Below, piece after piece: positions 4,100 through 61,250 of a DNA stretch of 64,000 bases (the stretch's first letter is position 1; each line of letters opens with the position of its first letter). This stretch comes from Blumeriella jaapii. Lineage: Eukaryota; Ascomycota; Leotiomycetes; Helotiales; Drepanopezizaceae. The notes under the pieces were generated by a model that saw only the letters and a list, made by a program, of their open reading frames with translations, was not told where the DNA came from and did no database searches. The translations under genes were made by a program, and so were the position numbers. The DNA is taken from assembly GCA_009599575.1 (NCBI GenBank), contig VWND01000083.1, positions 1 through 64,000 on the forward strand, given 5' to 3'.

Positions 4100-6763
4100 T
4101 TTTAATTCTATATTTTTTCGGTTTTTTAATTTGTTTTTAGCTTTTTTGCTATTAGCTTTTGCGAAAGAATAGCGTTTCGCTTATCGTTTAAATTATTTTG
4201 TTTATTTTGCTTTTTTAAAAAATGGCTTGATAAAATATTAATCGAAATATCGTTTAAATTTACAAACGTTTTAATAGCTTTTTCGTCGATAATATTATTA
4301 AGCGTCGCCGCGACGGATGTTTTTTACGATTTTTTTTCGTAAATAATAAATTTTAACTTTTGAACGTGGTTTTACGTTTTGTAAAAAGCATTAAAAAATT
4401 TTGTATTAAAATCGTAAAAATAATCGATTAATTCGTCGTGATTAAAACCGATTAACGCTTTTGTTTTACGTAAAACTAATAGGTCGGACTACGGTTATTT
4501 ACCGACGAATGCTTTTAAAAAAGCTTCGAAGCTTGTAAAAAAAATTATTTTACGAAATGGTTCGGAAATAATCGTTTGCAAATCGAAAACCATCGAAAAA
4601 TATTATAATTGCTTTCGCCGTAATACAAATAATATCAGATTATTTATCGGATTATCGTTTTTCGAAATAATTTTTATATTTTTGGCGCCGTATAATTATT
4701 CGAATAAATTAGTATTACGCCGTCGGTTTTTTTAGGTTTTAAATCTAACGAAAAACTTTTTGCTTAATCGAAAAGCTAATAAAAATTATTTTATTTTTTA
4801 TTTCGTAATTTTCGGTTTCGTAGTCCGATAAAATAGCCGAGGCCATTGCTTTAAACGCGCTGAAATACGAAAAAGCCGGGCTTTTTTAAATGATTTTAAT
4901 TAGCTTAGCGTCGTGGTATAATTGCAAATAAACTTCGATTATTTCCGAATTGTATACGAATGCAGGCAAAACGTAATAATCGAAAATAGCGTCGATAAAG
5001 TTTTCGATTTTTTCTTTTTTTTAAAAGTCGGCGATATCGAATTTTATAATTATAACACGGTCGTCGAACCAACGAAACCTAAAGCGATCGAAACGTTAAA
5101 ATAAGCTACGAAGCGGCAGTTTCCGAGATTTCGAATAATTAAAGCAGCGAAATAAAAGCCGGAGTACATTTTAAAAGCTTATTAATAAAATTGTAAAAGT
5201 ATATTAGCGAAAAAAAATTATAAGCGCTTTTTTGGGTTTTAACCAATCGAAAATAATATTTGTATATAACTACCTTTTTTTTTTTAAAATATAATAATGG
5301 TTTGTTTTTTTCGTTTATAAAATTTTACGTAATTAACGAATTCGCAATTTAATTCAAATAAGTTTTAAAATATATTTTCGGTCGAAAAGCCAAAAAAATC
5401 GGCTTTTAGAAATATTCGTTGCTTTTATTTTTTTACGTTTTAGTCGAATTTTATAATCGCGCTAAAAGTTTTAAAATTTGTTTTAAAATTTGCGTAGCCC
5501 AAATAAATCTTCGCACGTGCTTATATAATTCTCGCAGTTTTTCGTCGAAATATAAATTAATTATTAAAGTTAATTTCGAATACGTCGTAATCCGAATTTT
5601 TAATAGCAGCGAATCGATTAACGAAGCCGATAATATTAATTTTTTTTATAATTAAATCGCAGTACGCCGCGTAATACCGTACGTAAAAATAGCAAAACTT
5701 GCCGTTTTTTTTAGCGTTAATATTATTCGTAAAAACGAAATTAAAAAATCGAAGTTTTTTAATAAAAAAAAGCTCGAATAAAAACGGATTACCGTTTTTA
5801 AAAATCTTTTTTATTTGCTTTAACGTATTACATTTGCAATTTTCCGAAAAAAGCTTAATTTAATTTTCGTTCGAAGCAAAAAAAAAAAAAGCTAACGAAT
5901 TTATTTAATTTTTATATAAAAATATCGAAATAAAACTTTTAAATCGTTTCGTCGTTAAAAACGAAAGTTTTAAGCAAAATAATTTGATTTTAAACTTTTT
6001 ATATAATTTCTTTCGCGATAATTTCGATATTTTTTTTTAGGTTTTTTCGGTCGAATCGTATAATAATCGAGATTTTAAATGCTTTTATTAAAATTTAAAA
6101 TATTAGCGATAGCGGTACGACGTTTTTAAACGCAGCAAGCGTTTTTAATATTTGCGTATTTAATTTCGAAAAATCAGATTCAAAATCGTTTAAGTTTTTT
6201 TTTTTCGAAGTGCCGGCGTTTTTTAAATCTGATTTCGTAAAATCGTCGCGTTTTTTATTAATTAGCTTAAAACTTATAATCCGGCGTCGATTTTCGGCTG
6301 TTTTTATTCGCGGTGCCTTTTTTGCTAGCGACGCGAATAATTTTTTTTTTCGAATAAAAAATATTTCGGAAATATCGGCGCGCTTTTCTACGTTTTTTAT
6401 TTTTATTTTTTCCGAAATCGTTTTTACCGGTATAATAAATTTTTTATATTCGAATAAGCGGTTGTTTGCTATTACGCTTTTAATTTCGTTTTCGGATTCG
6501 TTTTCGATAATTAGAAATAAAAATCGCCGAATTATTTTAGCTGTTTAAAAATATTAATTGCTACTGCGTATGTTTTTTCGAATTAAACGAAAATAATATT
6601 AGCTTTTTCGTTTTTTTCGTCGTCGTAAATTTAAAACGTCGAAATAGCGTCGTTTTTTTTATTCGGTATAAAAATGCCGTATTTAACGACGCTTAATCTT
6701 TTGCTTTAAAAAAAAATCAGATTTAAAATTTCGCAGCCGATTAAAATTTTTTTTAGCGATTAT
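4100..6763 (-). pseudogene. A2 ORF2 remnant, larger part
   Basis: This is the minus-strand remnant of the long extra coding region of family A, homologous to 47445-50690 in A5. It is split by A3; the remainder is at 26308-26940. Stops are mostly TAA and TAG. It contains one m33 mini-element (6306-6338). I recognise no catalytic domain; see the A5 copy for details. Confidence 0.65.
6306..6338. repeat. m33 palindromic mini-element (A2 ORF2 site)
   Basis: A 33-bp unit with arms ATTCGCGGTGC and GCGACGCGAAT (9 of 11 positions are inverted-repeat matches) and a T-rich centre. It lies inside ORF2 without changing the frame. Confidence 0.8.
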
Positions 6764-7030
6764 TATAAAAGTAGGTAGGAAAACCAGACTGATACGGCCA
6801 TATGTCGATGGGTAGAATAGTTTAAGGAATCCCTAGAAAAAGCTGAAAAAAGGAAAAAAAAAATAAATAAAAGTATAAATTGAACTGCGTGCCTATAATA
6901 CTATCTAAAAGAATGCTTTGCTTTTATATTTATTAAAGGTAATTAATAGCAGAAGGTTTCGGAAAGGTTCATGCCTCGACTATAGCTAAAACTACCAATT
7001 TTTATTAATACAAAATATTACCGTTTTATA
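6764..7030 (-). repeat. A3 3' LTR (267 bp)
   Basis: Starts tataaaagtagg (TGTAAAA with one RIP change) and ends ttttata. The adjoining interior, ttctgtctcaaat, preserves on the minus strand the best copy of the purine-rich stretch (gagacagaa) expected just before a 3' LTR as polypurine tract. Confidence 0.9.
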
Positions 7031-7149
7031 TTCTGTCTCAAATAATATATATAATCGTTTTTAATTACAATTAAAAAAAAAACATAACTTTAATAAATGC
7101 AATCTAGTTTATTTTATATAATTTAAAAACTAATTAATTAAAAACCGAA

Positions 7150-10100
7150 CTTTTTAATTCCGCATATTTTCGGTTTTTTAACCCGTTTTTGGCTTTTTTG
7201 CTGTTGGCTTTTGCGGAGAAATAGCGTTTCGCTTATCGTTTAAATTATTTTATTTATTCTGCTTTTTTAAAAAATGGCTCGATAAAATATTAATCGAAGT
7301 ATCGTTTAAATCTACGAACGTTTTAATAGCTTTTTCGTCGATAATATTATTAAATATCGCCGCGACGGATGCTTTTTACGATTTTTTTTTCGTAAATAAT
7401 AAATTTCAATTTCTGAACGTGATTTTACGCTTTGCAAAAAGCGCGCTAAAAAGTTTTATATTAAAATCGTGAAAATAATCGATTAATTCGTCGTAATTGA
7501 AATCGATTAACGCTTTTGCTTCGCGTAAAACTAATAGGTCGATGATTACGGTTGTTTGCCGACGAATGCTTTTAAAAGGGTTCCGAAGCCTGTAAAAAAA
7601 ACTATTTTACGAAACGGTTCGAAAATAATCGTTTGCAATCGAAACCATCGAAAATGCTATGATTGCTTTCGCCGCAATATAAATAATATTAAATTACTTA
7701 TCGGATTATCGTTTTTCGAAATAGTTTCTGTATTTTTACGCCGTATAATTGTTCGAATAAATTAGTATTGCGCCGTCGGTTTTTTAGATTTTAAATCTGA
7801 CGAAAACTTTTTTGCTTAATCGAAAAGCTGATAAAAATTATTTTATTTTTTATTTTATAGCTTTCGGTTTCGTAGTCCGATAAAATAGCCGAAGCTATTG
7901 TTTTAAACGCGCTAAAATACGAAAAAGCTAAGCTTTTTTAAATGGTTTTAATCAGCTTAACGTCGTGATGTAATTGCAAATAAGCTTCGATTATTTCCGA
8001 ATTATATGCGAATGCAAGCAGAACGTAATAATCGAAAATGGCGTCGGTAAAGTTTTCGATTTTTTTTTTTTTTTTTAAAAATCGGCGATATCGAATTTTA
8101 TAATTGTAATACGGTCGGGGCCAGCGAAACCTAAAACGATCGGAACGTTAAAATATGCTACGAAGCGGCAGTTTTCAGAGTTTCGGATAATTAAAGCAGC
8201 GAAATAAAGGCCGGAGTGCATTTTAAAAGCTTATTAAAATAAAATTATAAAATATATTAGCGAAAAAAAGCTGTAAGTGTTTTTTAGGTTTTAATTAGTC
8301 GGAAATAATGCTTATATATAATTATTTTTTTTTTTATAAAATGCAGCAGTAATTTGTTTTTTCTCCGTTATAAGCTTTTACGTGGTTAACGAATTCGCAG
8401 CTTAATTTAAATAAATTTTAAAATATACTTTCGGTCGAAAAGCCAAAAAAATCGGCTTTTAGAAATATTCGTTGCTTTTACTTTTCCACGTTTTAATCGA
8501 GCTTTATAATCGCGTTAAAAACTTTAGAATCTGCTTTAAAATTTATATAGCCTAAATAAACTTTAGCACGCGCTTAAATAATTTTCGTAATTTTTCGTCG
8601 GAATATAAACTAATTATTAAAGTTAATTTCGAATACGTCGTAGTCCGAATTTTTAATAATAGCGAATCGATTAGCGAAGCCGATAATATCGATTTTTTTT
8701 ATAATTAAAATCGCAGTACGCCGCGTAACAGCGTATATAAAAATAGCAAAACTTGCCGTTTTTTTTGGCGTTAATATTATTTATAAAAACGAAATTAAAA
8801 AATCGAAGTTTTTTAACGAAGAAAAGCTCGAATAAAAACGGGTCACCGTTTTTAAAAGTTTTTTTTATTTGTTTTAGCGTATTATATTTGCAATTTTCCG
8901 AAAAAAACTTAATTTAGTTTTCGTTCGAAGCAAAAAAAAAAAAAGCTGACGGATTTATTTAGCTTTTTATATAAAAATATCGAAATAAAACTTTTGAATT
9001 GTTTTCGTCGTCGAAAGCGAAAGTTTTAAGCAAAGTAATTTAATTTTATGCTTTTTGTATAATTTTTTTCCGTAATAACTTCGATATTTTTTTTCCAAGC
9101 TTTTTCGGTCGAATCGCGTAATGGTCGAAATCTTAAATGCTTTTATTAAAATCTGAAATATTAGCGGTTCGACGTTTTTAAACGCAGCAAGCGTTTTTAA
9201 TATTTGCGTATTTAATTTCGAAAAATCAGATTTAAAATCGTTTAAATTTTTTCTTTTCGAAATACTAAGGTTTTTTAAATTTAATTTTATAAAATCGTCG
9301 CGTTTTTTTATTAACTAGCTTAAAGCTTATAATTCGGCGTTGATTTCCGGCTGCTTTTTTTATTCGCGGTGCTTTTTTTGCTAACGACGCGAATAGTTTT
9401 TTTCTTCGAACAAAAAGGATTTCGAAAGTATCGGCGCGCTTTTTTACGTTTTTTGTTTTTACTTTTTCCGAAATCGTTTTTATAAATACAATAAGCTTTT
9501 TGTATTCGAATAGGCGGTTGTTTGCTATTACGCTTTTAATTTCGTTTTTTAATTCGTTTTCGATAATTAAAAGTAAAAATCGTTAAATTGTTTTAGCTGT
9601 TTTAAAAAATATTAATTGCTATCGCGTATATCTTTTCGAATTAAACGAAAATAATATTAGCTTTTTCGTTTTTTTCGTCGTCGTAGATTTAAAATATCGA
9701 AATAGCGTCGTTTTTTTTCTTCGATATAAAAAATGCCGCATTTAGCGACATTTAATTTTTTGTTTTAAAAAAAAAATCAGATTTAGGGTTTCGCAACCGA
9801 TTAAAACTTTTTTTTTAGCGATTGCATAACGTCGTCGACCAATTTGCAAACAGTTGTAAAAAGGCTTGTAAACCTGCGGGCCTTTAGATTATTAGCTTTT
9901 AGAACTTACGTTTTAAAAATATAAGCGTTTAATATTTAAACTTTTTTTTTAATAAAAATAATAATTTCGAAAAAACGAGCGAAATGCCGAAATAAAATAA
10001 CACCGGTGATTTTGCTAAAAACGTATTTTTAAATATTTTTTTTTCGTTGATTTGGCAAAAAGCGCAAAATTCGGTCTATTATTTTTTTTTTATTATTTCG

Positions 10101-20660: not shown

Positions 20661-20693
20661 ATTCGCGGTGCCAACCGAAATAATAACGTAAAT
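20661..20693. repeat. m33 mini-element (A3 integrase site 1)
   Basis: 33 bp, left arm ATTCGCGGTGC, right arm RIP-altered (AACGTAAAT). It encodes part of FRLAPRM on the minus strand. Confidence 0.8.
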
Positions 20694-20723
20694 GCTTTTT
20701 CGGCCCGAAAATCGGTGTTTTTT

Positions 20724-20756
20724 ACTCGCGGTGCCAGCCGAAATAACAACGCGAAT
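20724..20756. repeat. m33 mini-element (A3 integrase site 2)
   Basis: 33 bp, ACTCGCGGTGCC to AACGCGAAT, 30 bp after site 1. It encodes FALLFRLAPRV on the minus strand. Confidence 0.8.
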
Positions 20757-38087: not shown

Positions 38088-38120
38088 ATTCGCGGTGCTA
38101 ATCGAAATAGCAACGCGAAT
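38088..38120. repeat. m33 mini-element (A4 integrase site 2)
   Basis: 33 bp, ATTCGCGGTGCTAATCG to AGCAACGCGAAT. One of the best preserved copies: arms match as inverted repeats at 10 of 11 positions. Confidence 0.85.
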
Positions 38121-40620: not shown

Positions 40621-40852
40621 ACCTATTAAAAAACAAGTTTTTTAACACGCTACCCAAATATCTAAACGCAATTTTATTTCATTTAATTTCTTTAAAAAAC
40701 ACAAAAACCTTTTTGATAGCTCCTTTATTAAAAACGATTTCTTTTATATTAAAAACCTTCAATCTGCAACTTCAAAAAACACTTATTTATCTAATTCAAA
40801 CCCTACCAACATTTTCGCTAATATTATAAATAACGACGCTTTTCGTTTTCTT

Positions 40853-42600: not shown

Positions 42601-42899
42601 AAATCGATAAATACATCAGCTTCGAAGCCGTCGACGAAGCTATTAAAAAAATTATAAAACAAAAAATTAAATTAAAATTTAACAATTTATTTAATACAAA
42701 AAAAAAATTCGACAAAATTATTAACAAACAAATTCCTGTATTAAAAAAAAACGAAAAAATTAAAATCATCCGAAAAAAAAACGACCTTAAATTAAAAAAA
42801 AACCAAAAAAAAATTTACAACATCGCAATCAATTTAGCCGATAAAAAAAAATCTTCGAAAAAAATCAACCTTTTAATTTTCGCTATAAAAACCCAAAAA

Positions 42900-43680
42900 T
42901 CAAAACGACGAAACTGCTTTTACACGGTTATAAAAACGCTAAAAATAAAAATTATATTTAAAAAAAATACGACCGCCCTTACCTTATTCGACAATAAAGC
43001 CGAAGTCAATTGTATAAACCAAAAAACAGCCGAAGCTAATAATATTCCGATTATTACCGATAAACGAATAATTTACATCACCGTTAATAAAAATATTATT
43101 AAATTTAATAAAATTATACGAAATATAAAACAAAACGTTAAAAGTATTATTACCTATAAAAACTTTTTAATAATAAAAAAATGCCCCCATCCCATTATTC
43201 TTAAAATACCTTAAATTCTGAAAAGTCTCGTCAACTTCAAATATACCGAAAACGGCCAGATAAAAGCCTTTTTTTAAAACTGAAACCGGTCCCTCCAAAA
43301 TCAAATCACCGTCGCCGGCGACAAAGTTCTAATCGACGTTTTATCGAAAAACGAATAACCGGCTTTGGTCTCAAAATAAACGCTAAGTTATAATAAAACC
43401 TGAAAAATACTCGGCTAAAAACATTCGCATCACCAATCGAAATAGCACCGCGAATAAAATTAATCAATATTAACATTTTTAGCTATCAATTCGAAAATAA
43501 AAATTCCGAAGATTTCGTTTTCGTATTAAACAAACCCGACCCATACACTCTACTTTTTTATATTAATATCAGCACTTTTTACAAGCGCAAAATTAATAAA
43601 ATACGATCCGTAAATTTCGGCGAATCCGATAAAAATATTTCCGAAAAAATAAACGATTAATTTAAAAAAAATAAAGCAAC
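42900..43680 (+). pseudogene. pol: A5 protease and protease-RT linker remnant
   Basis: Aspartic protease that would process the polyprotein. Near 42982-43020 it reads LFDNKAEVNCINQ, where DSGAE is expected; Ser and Gly codons became Asn and Lys by G-to-A. The linker carries m33 (43423-43455) in the reading FASPIEIAPRIKLI, then FVFVLNKPDPYTLLFYINIS. Inactive. Confidence 0.75.
43423..43455. repeat. m33 mini-element (A5 PR-RT site)
   Basis: 33 bp, seen here as ATTCGCATCACC to AGCACCGCGAAT (reverse orientation relative to the minus-strand copies). It encodes FASPIEIAPRI. Confidence 0.8.
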
Positions 43681-44560
43681 AAAACCATTTTAACCAATTA
43701 TTAACGAATTCGAAAAACTTATTACCGGCCGATTTTCCAGCTTATTATCCGGCAGCCGATTTACAAAAAAACGGTTTAATAACCTAGCAATCGGAACCCA
43801 ATTTTTACCAAAAAAAAAAAAAGTTTTATACGAAATTCTACGTAACCGAAAAAAAGCTATAATCTTCGATTTTACCGAAATAAGCCAATTTAGCTTTAAC
43901 ATTACGTCTTATATCGATATCAAAACCGTATTTTACAAAGTTTGGCAAAAAAAGACCTTTTCAATCCTTAAAACCTTTTAAAATAAAATAATCGAAATGC
44001 TAAAAAAACGAATTAAACAAAAAATTCTCGAATTTTGCTACGGCCCATATAAAAACAAATGGTTTATCGTTGCAAAAAAAAAAAAAGCATTTACAAATTT
44101 ATTATCGCAATCGTCGAAATAAATAAAATAACGATACGAAACGCTAACGTGCTATCTAACGTCGACCAATTTTCAAACGAATTTGCAAAATTAACAATCG
44201 CATTTTTTCTCGACCTGTTTTTAAGCTACGACCATTTAATGCTTAATTTACGATTTCGAAATATAACGGCAATTCAAACGCCAATCGGTTTATTACGTAT
44301 AACGAAAATACTTATGGAAGCCACCAATTCAATCGTTCAATTCGTAAAAATCGTATACAAAATTCTTATAATTTGTATTTCTGATATTATTCTTTTTTAC
44401 GTCGACGACGTCGAAATAAAAAGCTTCAAATTATATTATAATAATAAAAAAATCCTTTCTGAAATTCGACGCTATATAATAAAACATATCTAAAATATCG
44501 ACAAAATTATAATCTGTTTCGAAAAAGCCAAAACTATTATTAGCCCTCGATCAAAATTTT
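43681..44560 (+). pseudogene. pol: A5 reverse transcriptase remnant (VDD kept)
   Basis: Gypsy-type RT. The open stretch 44059-44493 (144 codons) covers the palm: FFLDLFLSYDHLMLN, then ITAIQTPIGLLRITKILMEA, TNSIVQFVKIVYKIL, and the active-site box YVDDVEIK (VDD at 44401-44409), ending EIRRYIIKHI. The motifs match fungal Gypsy polyproteins of the 'AFQTPLGL.R...LP.GATNS' type. Upstream (43870-44050) EISQFSF and MLKKRIKQ are RT N-terminal. It is the best preserved domain of the family in this window. Confidence 0.9.
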
Positions 44561-45300
44561 ATATATCCGAAATAAATATCGTTGGCTATATAACCGACAG
44601 CGCTAGCCGCCATTTTTAATAAAAAAAAATTAAAAAAATCTGCGAATAAAAAAAGTGTAAAAATATCACCGAAGCCAAAGCTTTTATTAGCGTTGTGATT
44701 TATTACCGCAATTAAATCAAAAACTTTTTTTAAAAAGCTGCATTTATTTACGCCACGATAAAAAAAAAAATCGATTTCGTTTGGAAAAAAAAGCAAAGCA
44801 AAACTATAAAAGTTTTTAAAAACGACTTTTTATCGGCCTTATTATTTATGCGGATCGATTACAACCCAAACGCAAAAAAAATTATTTTAATTATCGACGC
44901 TAGTATTTTCGATTAAAAAGCTGTATTACAACAAATCGATAAAAACAAAAAACGGCATTTTTCACGATTCGAAAACGATTTATAATCCTTCGCTAAAACA
45001 CGCTACGATGCTATTAAACGAAAATATCGAAACGCTTTTAAAACTATAAAAAAAATAAAAAACGAATTATACGGCGTATATTTTATTTTGAAAACAAACG
45101 CAAAAGTTTTTATCGATCAATTAAACGAAAAAGCTAATAACTTACCAAAAGCGTTCGTTATTAATTAAATAGCCTGGATACGACTTATAAACTTCGAAAT
45201 TAAACATATTAAAAAAATAATTAATACAGCGGCAAACGGCCTTTTCAAACGAAAACGTTTTTATTCGTTTAATTTCGCTAAACAAAACGAATAAAATATC
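44561..45300 (+). pseudogene. pol: A5 RNase H remnant
   Basis: RNase H domain. It reads NIVGYITDSASRHF at the RT end (about 44575-44620), then ILIIDASIFDQKAVLQQIDK, RYDAIKRKYRNAFKTIKKIK and GVYFILKTNAKVFIDQLNE, ending HIKKIINTAANGLFKRKRFY. These correspond to the catalytic-Asp strand, the 'YD..KRE' helix and the 'TDA..L..QLN' strand of Gypsy RNase H. The Q positions are now TAA. Confidence 0.8.
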
Positions 45301-45368
45301 GACGAATAAATCGCTAACAAAATCGGCTGTTTCGCTATTTGCGCTTTAAGTTTTACAAAACCAAAACC

Positions 45369-45401
45369 ATTCGCGTTGCTATCTCGGCTAGCATCGCGAA
45401 T
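45369..45401. repeat. m33 mini-element (A5 integrase site 2)
   Basis: 33 bp, ATTCGCGTTGCT to GCATCGCGAAT. It encodes FALLSRLASRI on the plus strand. Confidence 0.82.
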
Positions 45402-45431
45402 AAAAAACATTAATTTTCGGGCCGAAAAAGC

Positions 45432-45464
45432 ATTCGCGTTATTATTTCGGCTAACACCGCGAAT
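45432..45464. repeat. m33 mini-element (A5 integrase site 1)
   Basis: 33 bp, ATTCGCGTTATT to AACACCGCGAAT, 30 bp after the previous unit. It encodes FALLFRLTPRI. Confidence 0.82.
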
Positions 45465-47005
45465 AAATTTAACCGAAAACGATCGGAATAAGCCGATTAG
45501 CGACGAAAATAAACTTTTAATCGACAATTACGAAACCGACGATTTTTATTTAATCGTATATTATCTAACTATTTTATTTAAATCATTTAGCGTATCAAAT
45601 TATTAATTCAAATTATTTAAAAACTAAGCTTTCGATTATATTTTAGCCGACAAAAAGCTATATAAAATAAAAAACAATATACATTAAAAACGCTTAATAA
45701 TAAATAATAAAGCTGACAAGTTTCAAATCATAAAAAAAATCTACGAAAAAATATTTTATAAAAAAACTGAAATTATTTATTACCGAATTAAAAACGACTT
45801 TTAATAAAAAAAATACTTCGAAAACTGCAAAACCTTCGTCAAAAGCTGTATTCCTTACTAAAAACGAAAACCTGGCCGAAAACCTATTATATCCGACGTA
45901 GTTTTTTAAAATCTAAAAAAAAATCAATTTCGACGTTATACGCGTGCCAACTACCGACCGCGATTATATATGCTTCGTATTCGCTATTAACGACCTATTT
46001 AAATAGCTTAAAAAACGACCTTTCCGAAACGCTATTTTCGAAATTATAACGACCTTTTTTTAAAAAAACGTTATATATCGATACGATTTATTTAGCAAAT
46101 TAAATATCGATAATAAATCCGAAAACAAAAGCGTTATCGAAACTTTTATAAAAAAATACGAAATCCAACGTATTCAAATCTCAGTTTATAATTCGAAAAG
46201 CAACGGATCCGTGAAACAAAGCTATAAAAATATTTTTAACGGCCTTTCAAAAACTATTCGAAAAAGCTATAAGCGTTAATCGCGGAAATTCTCGGAAATG
46301 CTTTTTATTATGCGCATATGCATATACGCTCCTACTAAAATAATCTTATTTTTTATTTAATACGGCAAAAACGCTCGACTGCTTCTGAAAACAAAATAGC
46401 TTATTTAAAAACTTTATAACGTAATTAAAATAAAAACGAAAGCTGACCTATTAGCAATAAAATTTAAATAGCTAAACTACCGCGATATAAATATAAAAAA
46501 AATAATTTTAAAAAAAAAAAAATATAAAAAAGCAGCTAAAAAAATCTAAAATAAAACCAAGATTTTAAAAAAAACGCTAATCAAAAAAAAAAATTTGATT
46601 TTAATTTACAACGTTCAGCGCGCTATCGATAAATCGGCCGATACTAAGCTTAATTATAAATAGCTCGGACCCTACGAAATATGCGAAGCCGAATTAAATA
46701 AAAGCTATTATAAGCTTACGGAATTCGATAAAACAAAACTAAAAAAAACGTTCGCCGCCAACCGGTTAAAGCGATTTTACAAAAAAAATCAGCAAATCTA
46801 TCTTCTAAATTCTGATTCAAACAGCGACTCCGATTCCAGCGAATCCGACGACGATTCCGACCAAAGCGATTATACTTCTGAAAAAAAACCCTCTGAAAAA
46901 ATTTAAAAACAACCGGACGATAACCCCACTGCTAAAAGCACAATTCAAATAATAATTCCACCTATAACCGAAAAGAAAAAAAGTGCTTACAAAATTATCT
47001 ACTAA

Positions 47006-47444
47006 CTGTTCTACTATTCTTGTTTTCTTCTTTATTATATACTATTCTACTGTTTTTATTTTATCTTATTTATATATAACCTAATTATTCTGTTTCGTAT
47101 ACACTGTTTATTCTTAAGACCTTTTTCTATATTATTTGAAATATCTATTATACTTTTTTTTATTTAATTATATTTTTATTTACTAAAACAAAAGCTTTGT
47201 ATATATTTAAGCCGCATATCTGATACATTTATATTATTCGCATATTTTACGAAAACTATTCTTTATACATTTTATTATTTGCTACTTTCTACATTATTTA
47301 TTCTTTTCGCTATTTTAAACAAATACCTGCCTAAACAATTATAATTCATTAAAAAAACAGCATACGGATTCCCGTAACTTTTAAATACAAATACTTTATA
47401 ATTTTCGTATTTCCTTCTATTTATTTTTTAACAAACAACACACC
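47006..47444. other. A5 AT-rich spacer between pol and ORF2
   Basis: About 440 bp, strongly AT-rich and CpG-poor, with pyrimidine-rich stretches such as ctactgtttttattt. Nothing coding is seen. It may contain an internal promoter or splice signals for ORF2, but none can be shown. Confidence 0.5.
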
Positions 47445-50400
47445 TTTTTAATTAACAAACCTATCGATATTATATCGTTTCCTAAGCAAAGCGTTGCTAA
47501 ACCTAACAAACTTATTCTTAATTTATTTTAAAACGAAACTATTATACGCAATCTTTCCGAATTTAAATAAGCATATAATACCGCTATTTCAGATTAACAA
47601 ACAGCTTTCGTAAAAACATTTATAAAACAATTCGATATAATAACTGAAAACGTTAACGAATTTTTATTCGATTACGAAAGCTTTGTTAAAACTAAATTCG
47701 TTCGCAAAAGCTTTAATTACGACAAATTTTTGCTAAACTACGATAACGCTTTAAAAACCTTCGCCGAAGCGCAAAAAAAGCTCGAAATAATAAAAAAAAA
47801 ATAATAAACCGAATATTGCGCTTTTTGTTAAATCAACGAAAAAAGAATATTTAAAAATACGTTTTTAACAAAATCACCGATATTATTCCATTTCGGCATT
47901 TCGCTCGCTTTTTCGAAACTATTACTTTTATTAAAAAAAAAGTCTGAATATTAAACGCTTATATTTTTAAAGCGCAAGCTCTAAAAACCAATAACCCAAA
48001 AGCTCGCAAATTCATAAGTCTTTTTACAACTGTTTGCAAACTGGTCGACGACGTTATGCAATCGCTAAAAAAAATTTTAGTCGGCTGCGAAATTTTAAAT
48101 CTGATTTTTTTTTAAAATAAAAAATTAAACGTCGCTAAATACAGCATTTTTATACCGAACGAAAAAAACGACGCTATTCCGACATTTTAAATCTACGACG
48201 ACGAAAAAAACGAAAAAGCTAATATTATTTTCGTTTAATTCGAAAAAACATACGTAATAATAATTAATATTTTTAAAATAGCTAAAACAATTCGGCGACT
48301 TTTATTTCTAACAATCGAAAACGAATCCGAAAACGAAACCAAAAGCGTAATAACAAATAACCGCTTATTCGAATACAAAAAACCTATTATACTTATAAAA
48401 ACGATTTAAAAAAAAATAAAAACAAAAAACGTAAAAAAGCGCGCCGATATTTCCGAAATCTTTTCTATTCGGAAAAAAAAACCATTCACGTCGCTAGCAA
48501 AAAAGGCACCGCGAATAAAAACAGCCGGAAATCGACGCCGAATTATAAACTTTAAATTAATTAATAAAAAACACGACGATTTTACGAAATCAAACTTAAA
48601 AAACGCCGGCACCGCGAAAAAAAAAAACTTAAACGACCTTAAATCTGACTTTTCGAAATTAAATACGTAAATATTAAAAACGCTTGCTGCGTTTAAAAAC
48701 GTCGTACTACTACCGCTAATATTTTAAATTTTAATAAAAGCATTTAAAATCTCGATTATTATACGATTCGATCGAAAAAACCTAAAAAAAAATATCGAAA
48801 TTATCGCGAAAAAAATTATATAAAAAACATAAAATCAGATTATTTTATTTAAAACTTTCGCTTTCGACGACGAAACGATTTAAAAGTTTTATTTCGATAT
48901 TTTTATATAAAAACCAAATAAACCCGTCAGCTTTTTCCCTTTTGCTTCGAACGAAAACTAAACCAAACCTTTTTCGAAAAATTGCAAATATAATACGCCG
49001 AAATAAATAAAAAAACTTTTGAAAACGATAACCCGTTTTTATTCAAGCTTTTCTTCGCTAAAAAACTCCGATTTTTTAATTTCGTTTTTACGAATAATAT
49101 TAACATTAAAAAAAACGGCAATTTTTGCTATTTTTACGTACGTTATTACGCGGCGTACTACGATTTAATTATAAAAGAAATTAACGTTATCGATTTCGCT
49201 AATCGATTCGCTATTATTAAAAATTCGAATTACGATATATTCGAAATTAATTTTAATAACCAATTTATATTCCGACGAAAAACTGCGAAAACTATTTAAA
49301 CACGTGCTAAAACTTATCTAAAATACGCAAATTTCAAAGCAGACCCTAAAATACTTAACGCGACCATAAAATTCGACTGAAACGTAAAAAAGTAAAAGCA
49401 ACGAATATTTTTAAAAGCCGATTTTTTTAGCTTTTCGACCGAAAATATATTTTAAAATCTATTTAAATTAAGCTGCGAATTCGTTAATTACATAAAATTT
49501 TATAACGAAAAAAACAAGCTACTATTGTATTTTATAAAAAAAAAAATAGCTATATACAAACATTATTTCCGACTGATTAAAACCCAAAAAGCGCTTACAG
49601 CTTTTTTCGCCAATATATTTTATAATTTCGCTTAATAAGCTTTTAAAATGCATTCCGGCTTTTATCTCGCTGCTTTAATTATTCGAAACTCCGAAAACTG
49701 CCGCTTCGTAGCTTATTTTAACGTTCCGATCGCTTTAAATCTCGCTGATTCCGACCGTATTATAATCATAAAATTCGATATCGCCGATTTTTAAAAAAAA
49801 AAAAAAATCGAAAATTTTATCGACGCTATTTTCGATTACTACGTTCTGTCTGCTTTCGCATACAATTCGAAAATAATCGAAGCTTATCTGCAATTATATT
49901 ACAACGCTAAACTGATTAAAACCACTCAGAAAAGCCTAGCTTTCTCGTATTTTAGCGCGTTTAAAATAATAGCTTCGGCTATTTCATCGGATTACAAAAT
50001 CGAAAACTACGAAATAAAAAATAAAATAATTTTTATTAGCTTTTCGACTAAGCAAAAAGTTTTCGTCAAATTTAAAACCTAAAAAACCGACAACGCGATG
50101 CTAATTTATTCGAACAATTATACGGCGCAAAAATACAAAAATTATTTCGAAAATAATAATCCGATAAGCAATTTAATATTGTTTATACTACGGCGAAAGC
50201 AATTATAGCATTTTCGATAATTTCGACTGTAAACGACTACTTCCGAACCATTTCGTAAAATAGTTTTTTTTACAGGCTTCGAAGCCTTTTCAAAAGCATT
50301 CGTCGGTAAATAATCGTAATCCGACCTATTAGTTTTACGCAAAGCAAAAGCGTTAATCGGTTTTAATCACGACGAACTAATCGATTATTTCTACGATTTT

Positions 50401-50690
50401 AATACAAAACTTTTTAACGTCTTTTGCAAAGCGTAAAACCACGTTAAAAATTAAAATTTATTATTTACGAAAAAAAATCGTAAAAAGCATTCGTCGCAGC
50501 GACGTCTAATAATATCATCGACGAAAAAACTATTAAAACGTTCGTAAATCTAAACGACATTTCGATTGACATTTTATCGAGCCACTTTTTAAAAAAGCAA
50601 AATAAACAAAATAATTCAAACGATAAGCGAAACGCTATTTCTCCGCAAAAGCCAACAGCAAAAAAACTAAAAACGAATTAAAAAAATCGA
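47445..50690 (+). pseudogene. A5 ORF2: long extra coding region, function unknown
   Basis: About 1,080 codons after pol, present in A0, A2, A3, A4 and A5 and absent from ordinary Gypsy elements. RIP stops are mostly TAA, and there are frame changes near 47840 and 48830-49000. Readable pieces: FLFDYESFVKTKFVRKSFNY (near 47665), FTTVCKLVDDVMQSLKKILV (near 48020), IFIPNEKNDAIPTF (near 48150), an m33-encoded FTSLAKKAPRI (48484), INVIDFANRFAIIKNSNYD (near 49185), KALIGFNHDELIDYFYDFN (near 50345), and a Lys/Asn/Gln-rich C-terminus with KKQNKQNNSNDKRNAISPQK. No known domain is recognised. It might be an accessory or structural protein. Confidence 0.6.
48484..48516. repeat. m33 mini-element (A5 ORF2 site)
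   Basis: 33 bp, ATTCACGTCGCTAGC to GGCACCGCGAAT. It encodes FTSLAKKAPRI on the plus strand. Confidence 0.82.
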
Positions 50691-50828
50691 AAAAATATAA
50701 GGCTAAAAAGTTCGGTTTTTAATTAATTGGTTTTTAAACCATATAAAATAAATTAAATTATATTTATTAAAATTATATTTTTTTTTGATCGTAATTAAAA
50801 ACGATTATATATATTATTTAAAATAAAA

Positions 50829-51095
50829 TATAAAACGGTAATATCTTATATTAATAAAAATTAATAGTTTTAGCTATAATCGAAGCATAAATCCCTCCGA
50901 GACCTCCTGCCACTGACTACCTTCAACAGGTATAAAAGCAAAGCACCCTTTTAAATAATACCATAAGCACGCAATTCAATTTATACCTTCACTTATTCTT
51001 TTTTTTCTTTCTTTACTCTCTTCTAGGAATTCCCTAGGCTATCTTACCCACCGACATATGGCCGTATCAATCTGGTTTTCCTACCTACTTTTATA
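50829..51095 (+). repeat. A5 3' LTR (267 bp)
   Basis: Starts tataaaacggtaata (RIP form of TGTAAAACGGTGATA) and ends ctacttttata. It is followed by the target duplication ttac and the resumed A4 sequence. Confidence 0.94.
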
Positions 51096-51900
51096 TTACT
51101 TCGTTTTTTTCGAACCAATCGTTTATTTTTCCGGAAATATTTTTACCGAATTCGCCAAGATTTACAAATCGTATTTTATCAGCTTTATATTTATAAAAAA
51201 TGCTAATATTAATACAAAAAGGTAAAATATATAAATCGGATTTATTTAATACGAAAACGAAATCTTCGGAACTTTTATTCCCGAATTAATAATTAAAAAT
51301 ATTAATATTAGCCAATTTTATTCGCGGTGCTATTTCGATTAGCGACGTAAATGCTTTTAGCCGAATATTTTCCAGGTTTTATTATAGCCTAACGTCTATC
51401 CTAAAACCAAAGCCGGCTATTCGTTTTTTAATAAAACGTCGATTAAAAAGACTTTGTCGCCGGCGATAATAATTTGACCCTGAAAAAATCGGTTCCAATT
51501 CCAGAAAAAAGCTTTTATTTAATCGTTTTCGGTGTATTTAAAATTGACGAAGCTTTCCAAGATTTAAAACATTTTAAAAATAATAAAATAAAAGCATTTT
51601 TTTATTATTAAAAAGTTTTTATAAATAATAATATTTTTAACGTCGACTTTTATATTTCGTATAATTTTATTAAACTCAATCGTATTTTTATTAACGATAG
51701 TATAAATTATTTGTTTGTCGGTAATAATCGGGATACTATTGGCTTCGGCTGTTTTTTGGTTTATGCAATTAACTTCGGCTTTATTATCGAATAAAGCGAA
51801 AGCGATCGTATTTTTTTCAAGCATTATTTTTATTTTTAATGCTTTTATAGCCGTATAAAAACAGTTTCGTCGTTTTGACTTTTAGGTTTTTATAATAAGA
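51096..51900 (-). pseudogene. pol: A4 protease and linker remnant
   Basis: Minus-strand continuation of A4 pol beyond A5. The open stretch 51564-51824 reads IAFALFDNKAEVNCINQKTA (protease active-site region, DSGAE changed to DNKAE), then IIIYKNFLIIKKCF. It contains m33 at 51320-51352 in the linker towards RT. Confidence 0.75.
51320..51352. repeat. m33 mini-element (A4 PR-RT site)
   Basis: 33 bp, ATTCGCGGTGCT, centre atttcgatt, right arm AGCGACGTAAAT. Confidence 0.82.
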
Positions 51901-54972: not shown

Positions 54973-56190
54973 CGGCTTTAAAAAATACGTGTTCGAAGTT
55001 TTTGTACTTCGGAGAAAAAAATTCGAAGAAAAGTTTATTCGAAATTAATTTTGCTAAGCTGGTTGAAAAAGTCGAAATCGATATTTCGTTCGTTTTAAAA
55101 CGTTCGAAAAAACTATAAGATTAAATTTTAAAAAAAATATTATACGTAAAATCGTTTAATATTTTGTCGATTTCGTACAGAAAAATTAAAAACATTTTAA
55201 TTGCTTTTTTTCTGAAAATCAGCTTGAAAGCGTATGTAATAATTTGGCAGATAGAAATTGGGTAAGCAGTAAATTAAAAAACTCGTTTTCGAACTGATCG
55301 TTTGAGAAATTCAAAAGGTGGTTGCTTATTTGAACTATCGATTATATTAAGCTGAAAGGCTATCGCGGCGAGAGCCTTTTTTCGGTTTTTGATGTAATTG
55401 TTTTTCGTAGAACGAAAAAGCTGTTTTGACGAAGAAAAAAGAAAAAAAGAAGAAAAAAAAATAATAAAAAAGGGATCGTCAGCCTGGGAAGGTGGTGGTG
55501 TGATTTCTTGTATTATTCCACTGGCGTCGCTATCGAAATTAGCACCGCGAATGAAATTCGACTTTTTCGCGCTTCGCATAGCGTCGTAAATTTGCTATAA
55601 TTGGTCAAAGTTTTTGTCACGTCTTACAGCGTCGTTTTAATGGCGAAATTGAATTTTTCGGAGGTGCAAATAAAAGACTTTAATACAACGAGCGTAAAAG
55701 GCTATAAGGGGGTAAAACTTCGGCTAATAAAGCTTGCGTTTATTACAGTTTAATAAAATTTGATATTCGGCCAACCAAGCTTTTTTTAAAATCATATTAT
55801 AATTTCCGAGGTTAATAATTAAAAAAAAAGTAAACGATTGTATTCGATTGTTAATAATAAAATTGAAAAGCGTAAAATATATAATTAAATAGCTACGAGC
55901 TTTATTATACTTTTTTACAGAAAAAAAAGCCGGGAAAAATTAAATTAAAAGTTTAAAAAAAAAAAAAAAAGGATTTGATTAACGCCGAATCGATTAACGC
56001 ATAACCGTTCGTTTTAAAGTCGGCGAGCGCTTTTATTTTATACGAAAAGCCATTTTTAATAAGTGTAACGGGAATTATTAATAAATCGTTATTAAAAAGT
56101 TTTCGAACGTTAAAATAACGTATATCGCGCAATACGCTTAAAAAAAAGGCTTTGCTTAGGCTTAAGCGTTTTTTCGACTGGCGGGAAAGC
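54973..56190 (-). pseudogene. pol: B1 protease, linker and RT N-terminal remnant
   Basis: Minus-strand coding part of B1. The open stretch 55274-55579 reads MRSAKKSNFIRGANFDSDAS (including the m33-encoded IRGANFDSDA), then ITPPPSQADDPFF, a proline-rich linker. Upstream in reading direction (55986-56046) is ALADFKTNGYALIDSA, the aspartic protease active-site region where DSGA became DFKT by RIP-type changes. The RT N-terminus follows downstream towards 54973. Confidence 0.78.
55520..55552. repeat. m33 mini-element (B1 PR-RT linker)
   Basis: 33 bp in a different retroelement family: GGCGTCGCTATCG to AGCACCGCGAAT on the plus strand. The B1 coding strand reads IRGANFDSDAS through it, that is, the opposite orientation relative to coding compared with family A. 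Confidence 0.8.
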
Positions 56191-56778: not shown

Positions 56779-57048
56779 TGTGACGATCTAATCAGTCGAA
56801 GGGCTGGGAAATCAGTCAACTGGTCGCCTTGTTCATATGGTATAAGAAAACGAGCCTTTGGTTTTGTAACAAAGATATTTACTTAGAATTAACAACTGCA
56901 AAAGGCAGAAGTTGCTAAAAGAAAAAAGTCTTATATATATAAATAATTTCCACAATTGATAGAAAGATCCACTAAAAAACCAGGGAGCTTGCAGCTATAC
57001 GTAGTTGCTGGAATAACACGCGAAGTGATAAAAAAATAAATCGTTACA
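56779..57048 (-). repeat. B2 3' LTR (270 bp)
   Basis: Starts tgtgacgatctaatcag and ends aatcgttaca. It pairs with 62920-63189; the TGTGACGAT/ATCGTCACA inverted ends are 9 bp. Confidence 0.94.
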
Positions 57049-57062
57049 CTACCCCCCCGTCC
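57049..57062 (-). promoter_or_regulatory. B2 polypurine tract
   Basis: ctacccccccgtcc, which on the coding strand reads GGACGGGGGGGTAG directly before the 3' LTR. This is the expected plus-strand primer position, and it is unusually intact. In B1 the same place has become attatttttccgtcc. Confidence 0.75.
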
Positions 57063-58700
57063 GAAAAAAGCGCGCCCTCGAGCTTTTATCCATTAGTACG
57101 TCGCTATCTAAATAATCGTACGAATTCAAATCTTCGGAATACGCCTTTAGCCAGTCTATAAGTTTTGCAAAAGAACCGGGAAGCTTTTTATGCGCCAAAT
57201 GAAAATCGCGCATTTTTAAAAAAGTATATATAAAGTTAAACGCGAGGTACCACGTAAGATTTTTATTTAAGCTTATTTAAAAAGCTTTATATTAAAAAGT
57301 TTTCCGTTGCACTCGATAAGCGATTAATTCTTCGACTTCGTATTTAAGCTTATTAATTATATTAATAGGTTCAAAGATTGAATTAATCTGATTTGAAAGC
57401 GCGTCGTTAGCTGTTTTACGCAGTCGATTAGCGTGGAAAACTGAATGTACGTTTATAATACTAAAAAGATTTAGCTTAAAAACGTTATCGAAAATTTTGG
57501 CTATAATTTTAAAAAGGTCGTTTATAAAATTATCGAGTTTGCGAAAAGGCCGGAAGGTCGGAAATGAACGTATATCGAACCATACGTAATCGCCAACGTT
57601 AAAATCGATCGCGCGGCGAAACTTATTCGCATTTTTTTTATTTTATTATAAGCTTATTAAAAATACGATTTGGCGAAGTTTTAAACGTCGTAATAGCGGC
57701 GAGCGTACGCACGAGCTTCGTTTGCGTTTAATTTATATAAAAGGTTGAAAAAAAAAAATATCGAGCTTTCAATTTCAATTAGTATAAGAAGTATAACCGT
57801 ATACAATTTTAAAAGATAAAAAGCCATCTAGACTCTCGTAAAAAAGGACTATTTAAGCGAAATCCATTATTAAAAGAAATTCGCTCCAATCGTTTTGATA
57901 GAAATTTACGAAAAGTCGAAAGCGTTTTTACAAATATTAGTTATAAATTTCGGTTTGACCGTCGGTTTTAAAATAAGCGGCTATCGAAAGCTTTAATTGC
58001 GTATCGAGTATTTTGTTTAATTTAAACCAGAAAGTAAATTAATATTAAAAGCCACGATCGCTAATAATATTTTTTAAAAGGCCAAAATACTTATATACGT
58101 GAAATATATATAATTTAGCGAAGCTTCGAGCGTCGATATTTTTATAACAAAAGATCGAAATGGCTTATTTAAAAAAACGATTTATTATTACGAACACGTT
58201 GTCGTAACCGTATTTGTTTTTGTTAAAATTGCAAAAATCCATTATAACGTGCTTCCAAAAATGGTTAAAAATAAAAAAAGGCTGAAAAAAGCCGGAGCGT
58301 TTATTTTTTAAAATAAAACTTTTTCGATAAGCGTAGCAATTGCGATAATATTGTTTTACAAAAGCTGTTATACCTCGTTAATAATATTAATTCGAAAGCA
58401 ATTGCGTAGTTTTGCGAACGCTAAAATAAACGGTAAAAATTTGATCGTGCACTTTTTGTACGAAAATCAAACGAAAATAATCGACGTCTGGTATTATTAA
58501 GCGACCGTGATATAACAGCAAGTCGCGTTTAAATATATACGAAAACGGAGTATTATTAGCGTCGTTTCCTTTCGTAGCGTTCGTACAGCTTTTTTTCGAA
58601 AAGTTATTAAGCTGCTAGCTGTGCGATTAGCGTAAAAAAGCTAATCAACGATACGAAATGCGAAAGAAAAATCAGCTATTTCAACGATAAAAACAGCTGT
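57063..58700 (-). pseudogene. pol: B2 integrase with chromodomain
   Basis: Minus-strand integrase and chromodomain, homologous along its length to B1 29282-30950. The C-terminal region (57063-57560) corresponds to the chromodomain and a tail; next is the HPVFHV-type motif and GPF/Y module (about 57400-57560). The catalytic core and zinc-binding region lie at about 57700-58480. Many stops and D-to-N or E-to-K changes. Confidence 0.78.
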
Positions 58701-59200
58701 TTCGAAAACCGTGAAAAATCGAAGTTTTTTAATTAAAAAGCGGTGATCGATTTGATTTATTCGGAAAAAAGTTTGCAAGCGCTAGGTGCGTTTAAAAAAG
58801 TTTTGGCGGTCGAATTCGCTCGTACGACGTGTTAATGCGTTAATCAAAAAGTTGTATTTATCTGGTTTATACGTAATAAAAAAGTTGTAGTCGGCGAAAA
58901 GCTCGGCTCAGCGTATTTATCGAACGTTTAAAAGTTTAAAAATTATAAAATATTTCAAAGTTTTATAATTAGTAATAATTTTGATTTGATAAATTAAACT
59001 AGCTAATTTAATACGAAAATTGTCTAAAAATCTTACGATTGCGAATATCTTTTTATCGTATACGACGTAATTCAGCTTTGCGAAAGCTATAATTTTGCTA
59101 AAATAAGCGATTAAAAGCCAATCGTTGCTATAAAATTGCGAAAGCATAAAAGCTATTACGCCGTCGGAAGCGTTAGTTTTTAATATACAAAAAAGGTTTT
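58701..59200 (-). pseudogene. pol: B2 RNase H remnant
   Basis: The open stretch 58917-59147 reads NDWLLIAYFSKIIAFAKLNY, then YDKKIFAIVRFLDNFRIKL and IITNYKTLKYFIIFK. The family patterns are 'H.IAY.S.KL..AE.NY...D.E..A...' and 'TDHK.L.YF'; Asp is now Asn in the latter (ITNYKT), a RIP change at a catalytic residue. Confidence 0.85.
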
Positions 59201-60140
59201 GCTTATAATATTATAAAACTGATGCAGTAATAAAAGCTAATATAAAAAAGTCGAAACTTTTCTGACATTTAAAAATGAAATTAAAAAAAACGTTAGCTTT
59301 GGTCAAATAAATCAAAAGCTTTGCAATTATACCGTAGTTTCGAATAAAACGTCGGTAAAAATTACAAAACCAAAAAAGCTTTGTATATTTTTTACAATAG
59401 TAAAAAGCTTTTAATAAGCGACCACGGAAATCTTTTTTAAGTTTATTTTTAGGTTTTTAATCGAAATAATAAAACCTAGATAACGGGTCCGAGTAACGTT
59501 AAATTCAAACTTCCGAATATCGGTTTGTAATTCAGCGTCAACGAGCTTTTAAAGCATTTTGCGAACGTATATAACGTGTTTTAAAAAGTCGGATAAATAA
59601 ATAAAAATGTTATTTAAATATGCAATGCAAAAATCGTTTAAATAATCGAAAAAAACGTCGTTTATATAATATTAATAAGTTGCGGATTTATTAATAAAGC
59701 CAAAAAGTAGCATTTTGCATTTATAAGCGCCGTAACGCGTACGAAACGTCGTTAATTTTTTATTAACGGAATTTATTCGAATTTTGTAAAAAGCTTAACG
59801 AATATCGAGCTTCGTAAAGATTCGCGCTTTCGAAAAACAAATAAAAGTTTTATCGATAAAAAAAAAGAAATAGCGATTTTTACGAATAACGTTATTAAAA
59901 GCTCGATAATCGATATAAAAACGTAATAAACCGTCGGATTTTTTAGCGAAAAGCATTAGAGCAGCGAAAAAAGCGATAAAAGATTCGATAAAACCTTTAT
60001 TAAAATTATTTTGCAAATAAGTTTTAATAATTTCGAATTCCGGAATCGATATTTTATATAAAAAAGTATATTTCAGCTTTTTCTTATTTATAATAAGCTC
60101 GATTTTATAATCGTAGGGCCGGTAAAAGGCTAGCTCGTTA
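59201..60140 (-). pseudogene. pol: B2 reverse transcriptase remnant
   Basis: The open stretch 59795-60160 covers the RT N-terminus: YRPYDYKIELIINKKKLKYT, then YLQNNFNKGFIESFIAFFAA, LMLFAKKSDGLLRFYIDYRA and FTKLDIR. The active-site box is YLNN (59609-59620) in place of YLDD, both Asp codons changed by G-to-A. Downstream motifs match fungal chromoviral RT. Inactive. Confidence 0.9.
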
Positions 60141-61250
60141 CTGGCGGCTTTAAAAAACACGTATTCGAGGTTTTTGTATTCCGAGGAAAAAAATTCGAAG
60201 AAAGGTTTATTCGAAGTTAGCTTTGCTAAGCTGGTTGAAAGGGTCGAAATCGATATTTTATTAATTTTAAAACGTTCGAAAAAACTATAAAATTAAATCT
60301 TAAAGGAAATATTATACGTAAGGTCGTTTAGTATTTTGTCAATCTTATACAAAAAGGTTGAAAACACTTCAATTGCTTTTTTTTTAAAAATCAGCTTAAA
60401 AACGTATGCAATAATTTGGCAGATGGAAATTAGATAAGCAGTAGATTAAAAGATTCGTTTTCGAATTGATCGTTTAAAAGATTTAAAAAATGGCTTGTTT
60501 AAATTATCGATTATATTAAGCTGAAAGGCTATCGCGGCGAAAGCTTTCCTTCGGTTTTTGATATAACTGTTTTTCGTAAAACGAAAAAGCTGTTTTAACG
60601 AAAAGAAAAAAAAAAAAAAAAAAATAAAAAAAAAAAATCGGCAGCTTGGGAAAATAATATAATTTCTTATATTATTTTATTGGCGTCGCTATCGAAATTA
60701 GCACCGCGAATAAAATTCGATTTTTTCGCGCTTCGCACAGCGTCGTAAGTCTGCCATAATTAATCAAAATTCTTGTTACGTTTCACAACGTCGTTTTAAT
60801 AGCGAGATTAAATCTTTCGGAAATGCAAATAAAAGACTTTAATACAACGAGCGTAAAAAGCTATAAAAAGGTAAAACTTTGGCCAATAAAGCTTGCGTTT
60901 ATTACAATCTAATAAAACTTGGTATTCGGCCAACCAAGCTTTTTTTAAAATCATACTATAATTTCCGAAGTTAATAATCAAGAAAAAAATAAACGATTGT
61001 ATTCGATTATTAATAATAAAATTAAAAAGCGTAAAATATATAATTAAATAGCTACGAGCCCTATTATATTCTTTTACAGGAAAAAAAGCCGGGAAAAATT
61101 AAATTAAAGATTTTAAAAAAAAAAAAAAAAATTTGATCAGCGCCGAATCGATCAATATATAACCGTTCGCTTTAAAATCGGCGAGCGCTTTCATTTTATA
61201 CGAAAAGCTATTTTTAATAAATATAACGAGAATTGTTAATAAATCGCCAT
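60141..61250 (-). pseudogene. pol: B2 protease and linker remnant
   Basis: The protease active-site region near 61139-61198 reads ALADFKANGYILIDSA, DSGA changed to DFKA. Downstream, RAWLAEYQVLLDC-type residues and KLYWP complete the protease. The linker, as in B1, contains SAKKSNFIRGANFDSDA with the m33 unit at 60679-60711 and then a basic, proline-containing stretch to RT. Confidence 0.75.
60679..60711. repeat. m33 mini-element (B2 PR-RT linker)
   Basis: 33 bp, ATTGGCGTCGCTATCG to AGCACCGCGAAT. Same site as in B1, so acquired before the two copies diverged. Confidence 0.82.

What the first reader, a model, noticed from the sequence alone, without database searches (positions are those of the whole stretch)
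6306..60711. A 33-bp palindromic mini-element (m33) inside the coding frames of two different retrotransposon families
Seen: 17 units of 33 bp with arms ATTCGCGGTGC and GCRACGCGAAT and a variable centre, at 6306, 9362, 20661, 20724, 22670, 28930, 28993 (cut), 34960, 38025, 38088, 43423, 45369, 45432, 48484, 51320, 55520 and 60679. These collapse to five independent sites: family A PR-RT linker, family A integrase (two), family A ORF2, and family B PR-RT linker. The length is a multiple of three, and each site is read through without frame change (FALLFRLAPRI, FASPIEIAPRI, FTSLAKKAPRI in family A; IRGANFDSDAS in family B, opposite orientation). Two families sharing a CpG-rich palindrome at unrelated polyprotein positions suggests a tiny mobile sequence that tolerates insertion in proteins. 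Rickettsia palindromic elements are the known analogue; I know of no described fungal case.
Basis: partly seen in the sequence, partly recalled or inferred. Interest (0 to 1): 0.87.

Follow-up and report, generated by a model that had tools for sequence, protein, structure and literature searches.

The report
Palindromic 33-base insert in retrotransposons
The same hairpin-like 33-base sequence sits, read in frame, at several unrelated places in the genes of two different fungal retrotransposons, which suggests a tiny insert that was copied a few times and then carried along when the retrotransposons multiplied.

Summary
In detail: all 17 units are in place. A scan blind to RIP mutation finds 16 of 17 at 25-26 of 26 arm positions, against at most 24 elsewhere and in five shuffles. 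The genome (47.4 Mb; nearest named relatives Helotiales) holds about 1,100 exact-arm places. All 108 distinct copies read in context lie at the same five sites: four in family A (11.3 kb), one in family B (6.4 kb). Exclusion searches gave no convincing further site. The shared thing is DNA, not peptide: it ends sharply at 33-34 bp and is read in different frames on opposite strands in A and B. Anatomy: 13-bp arms, 7-nt loop; one site's loop is the reverse complement of another's, as template switching would leave. No empty site was found among 40 scored copies each for B, c and d; at the a/b doublet 5 of 37 keep one unit. Best reading: a quasi-palindromic micro-insert copied at least three times, then amplified as a passenger. 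The copying mechanism, present mobility and host-gene copies are not shown.

The parts
6306..6338 (+). m33 unit, site c (family A ORF2); the strand given is that of the ATTCGCGG...A arms, the coding strand of A is the other
9362..9394 (+). m33 unit, site c
20661..20693 (+). m33 unit, site a (family A, after the RT/RNase H region and before the integrase region; domain names by eye)
20724..20756 (+). m33 unit, site b, 63 bp from a
22670..22702 (+). m33 unit, site d (family A PR-RT linker)
28930..28962 (+). m33 unit, site a
28993..29013 (+). m33 unit, site b, first 21 bases; cut by a family B LTR that starts at 29014
34960..34992 (+). m33 unit, site c
38025..38057 (+). m33 unit, site a
38088..38120 (+). 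m33 unit, site b
43423..43455 (-). m33 unit, site d
45369..45401 (-). m33 unit, site b
45432..45464 (-). m33 unit, site a
48484..48516 (-). m33 unit, site c
51320..51352 (+). m33 unit, site d
55520..55552 (-). m33 unit, family B PR-RT linker; here the arm strand is also the coding strand
60679..60711 (-). m33 unit, family B PR-RT linker
39818..51097 (+). one family A copy (about 11.3 kb): LTR 39818-40084, gag/PR-like pieces, site d, RT-like pieces, sites b and a, integrase-like region, ORF2 with site c, LTR 50831-51097; domain names by eye except a weak RT match
   Evidence: self-BLAST; open pieces; RT only weakly matched (4ol8 E 0.18)
56779..63189 (-). one family B copy (about 6.4 kb), Ty3/Gypsy type, ends TGTGACGAT...ATCGTCACA, flanked by CGTAC on both sides
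   Evidence: RNase H PF17917 and SH3_Tf2-1 PF24626 on the minus strand; RT of another copy PF00078 and Ty3 RT 4ol8 E 5e-15; protease RVP_2 only below cut-off (E 0.008)

Best explanation
m33 is a 33-bp (perhaps 34-bp, with a C before ATTCGCG) quasi-palindromic DNA micro-insert: 13-bp arms, one arm mismatch, 7-nt loop. Shown: one and the same DNA sequence is present at five places in two unrelated LTR-retrotransposon families, with abrupt ends, in frame, on opposite strands and in different frames. Inferred: it was copied into coding DNA at least three times before each family expanded. It survived where 11 extra residues are tolerated (inter-domain linkers of Pol, and ORF2) and then multiplied as a passenger by retrotransposition. 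Its loop flipped between the a/b and the c/d/B forms by template switching within the hairpin (exact for b against d, approximate for c and B). The a/b doublet loses one unit by recombination between the two 33-bp direct repeats. How the unit was copied from site to site is not known. The likeliest route is a strand-switching event at the hairpin during DNA synthesis (host replication, or reverse transcription of co-packaged RNAs) that pastes it elsewhere.
For: Sharp boundaries: in the inferred site strings 12 bases of one arm (positions 22-33, coding-of-A orientation) are identical at all five sites; the other arm varies at five positions, four by transition; flanks drop to 8-20 of 45 matches per pair. 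The B unit's best matches anywhere in a family A copy are m33 sites (26, 25, 24 of 33; the fourth A unit gives 22); the best elsewhere is 20, and 30 shuffles peak at 18-22. Different frame and strand: FASLxxxAPRI on the reverse strand at offset 1 in A, IRGANFDSDAN on the forward strand at offset 0 in B. The fourfold-degenerate third bases in GCG, GCA, CCG and CGA are the same at a, b, c and d, which peptide conservation alone would not give. In purine/pyrimidine code 2 of 26 arm columns vary across sites b, c, d, B, against 4 of 7 loop columns (Fisher p = 0.011). The loop of b at 38088, ATCGAAA, is the exact reverse complement of loop d, TTTCGAT. [quoted passage not shown] Passenger amplification: by match span, 40 of 40 scored copies are filled at B, at c and at d. 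Double a/b copies differ on average by 11% in all bases but 0.7% in transversions, so A is a recent burst later hit by RIP. Loss at a/b: 5 of 37 full-length rows keep one unit (all five read; left flank of a, right flank of b), and L085 (single) shares three transversions with L069 (double) against the rest.
Against: No empty orthologous site, no third family and no host-gene copy were found, so insertion is inferred from shared sequence at non-homologous sites, not from filled/empty pairs. The searches needed near-perfect arms or known flanks, and only 40 candidates per flank search were scored (of 690, 475, 476 and 482). The three independent A sites all use the same strand and frame; with four open frames available that is about a 1 in 16 chance, and it also fits a peptide role. 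No target-site duplication could be recognised, and no enzyme is known. The hairpin's folding energy exceeds shuffles clearly only for b and d (up to about 2.9 sd), little for c and B, and not for a on one strand. The arms-versus-loop test rests on four sites, and the typed d representative is a composite. Transversions are few, so kinship among copies is poorly resolved.
Confidence: 0.55

Rival explanations
1. The units spread without any element of their own: ordinary short-patch copying (gene conversion, reverse-transcriptase template jumps between co-packaged A and B RNAs, or local duplication) moved a chance palindrome within A and once into B.
For: Only five sites, in two families of the same genome. 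a and b are 31 of 33 identical and 63 bp apart. AAA-S-C precedes all four A sites, which could serve as microhomology.
Against: Each event would have had to carry the same 33-34 bp and nothing more, which is just what defines a unit. B shares the unit but not the AAA flank.
Confidence: 0.27
2. A peptide motif selected in the polyprotein (protease cleavage site, flexible linker, localisation signal) is repeated at domain junctions.
For: Sites a, b, d and B lie between Pol domains (domain names in A by eye). All A units are read in the same frame.
Against: Third codon positions are the same between A sites, the DNA is palindromic, and B reads another frame on the other strand, so the peptides differ (FASLxxxAPRI against IRGANFDSDAN) while the DNA is shared.
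Confidence: 0.06
3. m33 is a binding or recombination site (13-7-13 layout like lox/FRT/RS sites of tyrosine recombinases), conserved in its arms and free in its spacer.
For: Arms vary less than the loop. The layout resembles lox-type sites (recalled, not tested). Loop orientation differs between sites.
Against: Among 108 distinct copies the only mixed junctions are the five a-left/b-right single-unit copies, which ordinary direct-repeat recombination explains. No recombinase search was made.
Confidence: 0.08
4. Chance similarity of AT-rich, RIP-mutated DNA.
For: RIP makes many degenerate AT-rich repeats in this genome.
Against: Controls are 0 against 1183/1300 and 3 against 1090, and the transversion-only scan singles out these units in the window.
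Confidence: 0.01

Closest known systems
Rickettsia palindromic elements (RPE), and the similar protein-coding palindromes of Wolbachia and Methanocaldococcus
   Same: Palindromic DNA inserted in frame in coding genes, typically in non-structured segments (passages of PMC10969869 and PMC2996958).
   Different: RPEs are about 150 bp, in ten families, inserted in many unrelated bacterial genes. m33 is 33 bp and was seen only in two retrotransposon families of a fungal nuclear genome.
Repetitive hairpin elements of organelle DNA (yeast mitochondrial GC clusters, double hairpin elements, sponge RHE)
   Same: Short hairpins dispersed in a genome, mostly between genes but at times inside them (PMC2800124 passages).
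   Different: Organellar. m33 is nuclear, lies in coding sequence at all five sites, and was seen only in retroelements.
Spacer inversion and arm homogenisation in short inverted repeats by template switching
   Same: Explains the flipped loop and the matched arms (PMC8604942).
   Different: That process rewrites a repeat in place; it does not by itself move it to a new site.
MITEs
   Same: Short inverted-repeat DNA without an enzyme of its own.
   Different: No larger parent with such ends and no target-site duplication were recognised; 33 bp is below usual MITE length (recalled).

Membership tests
Protein-coding palindromic element (RPE-like, broad sense) | Palindromic unit repeated at non-homologous positions | tested here: met
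   Five sites with unrelated flanks; hairpin predicted for both strands of five units, with energy above shuffles to varying degree
Protein-coding palindromic element (RPE-like, broad sense) | In-frame insertion that keeps the gene open | tested here: met
   33 bp; open frame through the unit in A and B pieces
Protein-coding palindromic element (RPE-like, broad sense) | Filled and empty orthologous sites | tested here: not met
   No empty site in 40 scored copies each for B, c, d; at a/b only loss of one of two units in 5 of 37; no relative species could be searched
Rickettsia palindromic element (strict) | About 150 bp, inserted in many unrelated cellular genes | tested here: not met
   33 bp; all 108 distinct copies read lie in two retrotransposon families
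MITE | Target-site duplication | tested here: inconclusive
   No flanking direct repeat common to the five sites (by eye); without an empty site a short one cannot be excluded
Tyrosine-recombinase target site | Recombination at the site by a cognate recombinase | tested here: inconclusive
   Mixed junctions only between a and b, 5 of 108 copies; no recombinase search was made
Ty3/Gypsy LTR retrotransposon (family B, the carrier) | RT, RNase H and integrase-side domains between LTRs | tested here: met
   PF00078, PF17917, PF24626; 4ol8; LTR pair and CGTAC on both sides
Ty3/Gypsy LTR retrotransposon (family A, the carrier) | RT, RNase H and integrase-side domains between LTRs | tested here: inconclusive
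   LTR pair clear; RT match weak (4ol8 E 0.18); no Pfam match above cut-off in the pieces scanned

The most novel reading that the evidence does not exclude
A hyperparasitic palindromic micro-element of a eukaryotic nuclear genome: a 33-bp hairpin that spreads between retrotransposons by pasting itself in frame into their coding regions, tolerated as an 11-residue insert, and that uses the host retrotransposon as its amplifier.
Probability: 0.4. Interest if true: 0.8.

Novelty: new variant of a known kind. Interest (0 to 1): 0.58.

Why it matters
Protein-coding palindromes are known as selfish inserts in some bacteria and an archaeon. A nuclear eukaryotic case inside transposon genes would extend the phenomenon and give a clean system in which copy number, RIP-immune kinship and site count can all be measured. 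It also bears on how short inserts enter proteins: the linkers between Pol domains would act as tolerant landing sites.

Tried and rejected
Chance and RIP artefact: rejected by controls and by the purine/pyrimidine scan. Peptide repeat: disfavoured by the B frame and strand and by third codon positions. Further sites: searched with arms intact and known centres excluded (R at 15: one search gave 0, one search gave 7 forward and 9 reverse; S at 13: one search gave 2). All 18 places were cut out as loci, and those that carry a unit fall in known contexts. With five excluding positions and 3 mismatches, one search gave one place on both strands, equal to its control; that place lies in the stretch later fetched as L070, in a host gene, and I read it as chance. 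With RIP-tolerant arms and new loops, one search gave 5 places, control 0, all close variants of known types by their letters; two of the five are also and were read in context, three were not. A 33-bp place next to site a (20597, 37961, 45496) had 3 arm mismatches; the window expects about 9 such matches by chance. Viral and bacterial/archaeal collections: no exact match. Protein relatives of two unit-bearing pieces: none. Rfam: no family at gathering scores. No other fungal genome could be searched with these tools. Literature: answered searches listed no nuclear fungal protein-coding palindrome that I recognised; the library lacks most subscription journals.

Papers seen: PMC8604942 (abstract and section 6); PMC10969869, PMC2996958, PMC2800124, PMC2694212 (passages only); all others as search listings; PMC186582 was not held.

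It shows that the 23 copies counted as a are 18 at a and 5 single-unit copies with left flank of a and right flank of b.
Full report
Observation. I scanned in purine/pyrimidine code, which RIP transitions cannot change. There 16 of 17 units reach 25 or 26 of 26 arm positions; the best other place in the window reaches 24, as do two of five block-shuffled windows. Genome-wide, the long-arm pattern with up to 3 mismatches gives 1183 forward and 1300 reverse matches (some places on both strands) and no control match. The palindromic short-arm pattern gives 1090 places against 3.

Where. The genome is 47.4 Mb in 91 contigs. One host protein from it, Spo7-like, is nearest among named relatives to Drepanopeziza brunnea (79%), Diplocarpon rosae (75%) and Cadophora gregata (72%); the single closest hit is an unnamed protein at 99%. 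Drepanopeziza and Diplocarpon are Helotiales, family Drepanopezizaceae. Family A is about 11.3 kb with 267-bp LTRs (39818-51097). It carries site d between protease-like and RT-like pieces, b and a further on before the integrase-like region, and c in an extra ORF before the 3' LTR. These domain names in A are by eye from recalled motifs; the only computed support is a weak RT match (E 0.18). Family B is about 6.4 kb (56779-63189), ends TGTGACGAT...ATCGTCACA and is flanked by CGTAC on both sides. It has RNase H and Tf2-type SH3 domains on the minus strand, a protease match only below cut-off, and in another copy a Ty3-type RT (E 5e-15). Self-BLAST at E 1e-10 shows no stretch of 250 bp or more shared by A and B. 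The B unit lies in the PR-RT linker.

Five sites and no more seen. In 88 held sources (285 kb, most of them fetched because they carry the unit) 108 distinct copies passed the arm scan and none was unassigned. By each flank on its own they are a 18, b 17, c 27, d 5, B 36, and 5 with the left flank of a and the right flank of b. Patterns built to exclude the known centres gave 0, 7+9, 2 and 2+3 matches. Those that were read in context (all, two of five) lie at known sites; the other three were judged from their letters only. A looser search gave one place, equal to its control, in a host gene, which I read as chance.

DNA, not peptide. In A the unit is read on the reverse strand at offset 1 (FASLxxxAPRI). 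In B it is read forward at offset 0 (IRGANFDSDAN), and in L040 and L059 that frame runs on into the segment just before the RT. Third codon positions GCG, GCA, CCG, CGA are the same across A sites. In a whole A copy the unit of B finds m33 sites as its best matches (26, 25, 24 of 33); the fourth A unit gives 22, places elsewhere 20, and 30 shuffles 18-22. Similarity is confined to 33-34 bp.

Anatomy. The arms are 13 bp with a G/A mismatch at 8/26, and the loop is 7 nt. Predicted hairpins range from -5.9 to -14.4 kcal/mol against shuffle means of -5.5 to -7.8: about 2.9 sd better for the best strands of b and d, about 1-1.5 sd for c and B, and none for a on one strand. The loops are GYCGAAA (a, b), TTTTTGC or an all-pyrimidine form (c), TTTCGAT (d) and ATTTCGA (B). 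The loop of b at 38088 and that of d are exact reverse complements. Across b, c, d and B, 2 of 26 arm columns and 4 of 7 loop columns vary by transversion (p = 0.011). [quoted passage not shown]

History. Joined-flank queries, in which an empty site would rank first, found none: B 40 of 40 scored (690 candidates), c 40 of 40 (475), d 40 of 40 (482). These were judged by match span, one B row being partial; 6 B and 4 c copies were also read. At a/b (476 candidates, 40 scored) 37 rows were full length or nearly so: 32 carry both units and 5 carry one unit without the 30-bp spacer; all five were read. Among 23 a/b copies the mean distance between the 18 double ones is 11.2% in all bases and 0.7% in transversions, so A is a recent burst later hit by RIP. 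Resolution is low, but the single copies do not stand together, and L085 (single) shares three transversions with L069 (double), so single units are best read as repeated losses. The insertions therefore predate the expansions.

Mechanism and rivals. I favour a micro-insert copied at least three times and then carried as a passenger. The copying step is not shown. Short-patch copying between retrotransposons is the main rival and differs mainly in whether the 33 bp is a unit in its own right; the constant ends favour that. A peptide role is disfavoured by the B frame. The 13-7-13 layout recalls recombinase sites (recalled), but the only exchange seen is between the neighbouring a and b.

Novelty. 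Protein-coding palindromes are known in Rickettsia, Wolbachia and Methanocaldococcus (passages), and organelle hairpin elements in fungi, plants and sponges (passages). My seven answered literature searches listed no nuclear fungal case that I recognised, in a library that lacks most subscription journals.

Noticed in passing
28993-29014: A family B element inserted inside the unit of site b, right after its loop and the next base. Whether B prefers such hairpins as targets was not tested.
   Followed up: partly
20694-20723 and its copies: The 30-bp spacer between a and b itself contains a short palindrome (TTTTCGGGCCGAAAA on the coding strand); five copies lack the spacer together with one unit.
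   Followed up: partly
3708-9823: A family A block of about 3.05 kb (LTR-like start plus ORF2 with site c) occurs twice in a row, 87.6% identical.
   Followed up: no
47500-50700: Family A has an extra coding region of about 3 kb between the integrase-like region and the 3' LTR, with no Pfam match above cut-off in the pieces scanned.
   Followed up: partly
39818-51097 and relatives: Double a/b copies differ by 11% in all bases but 0.7% in transversions, so purine/pyrimidine coding gives RIP-free kinship.
   Followed up: yes
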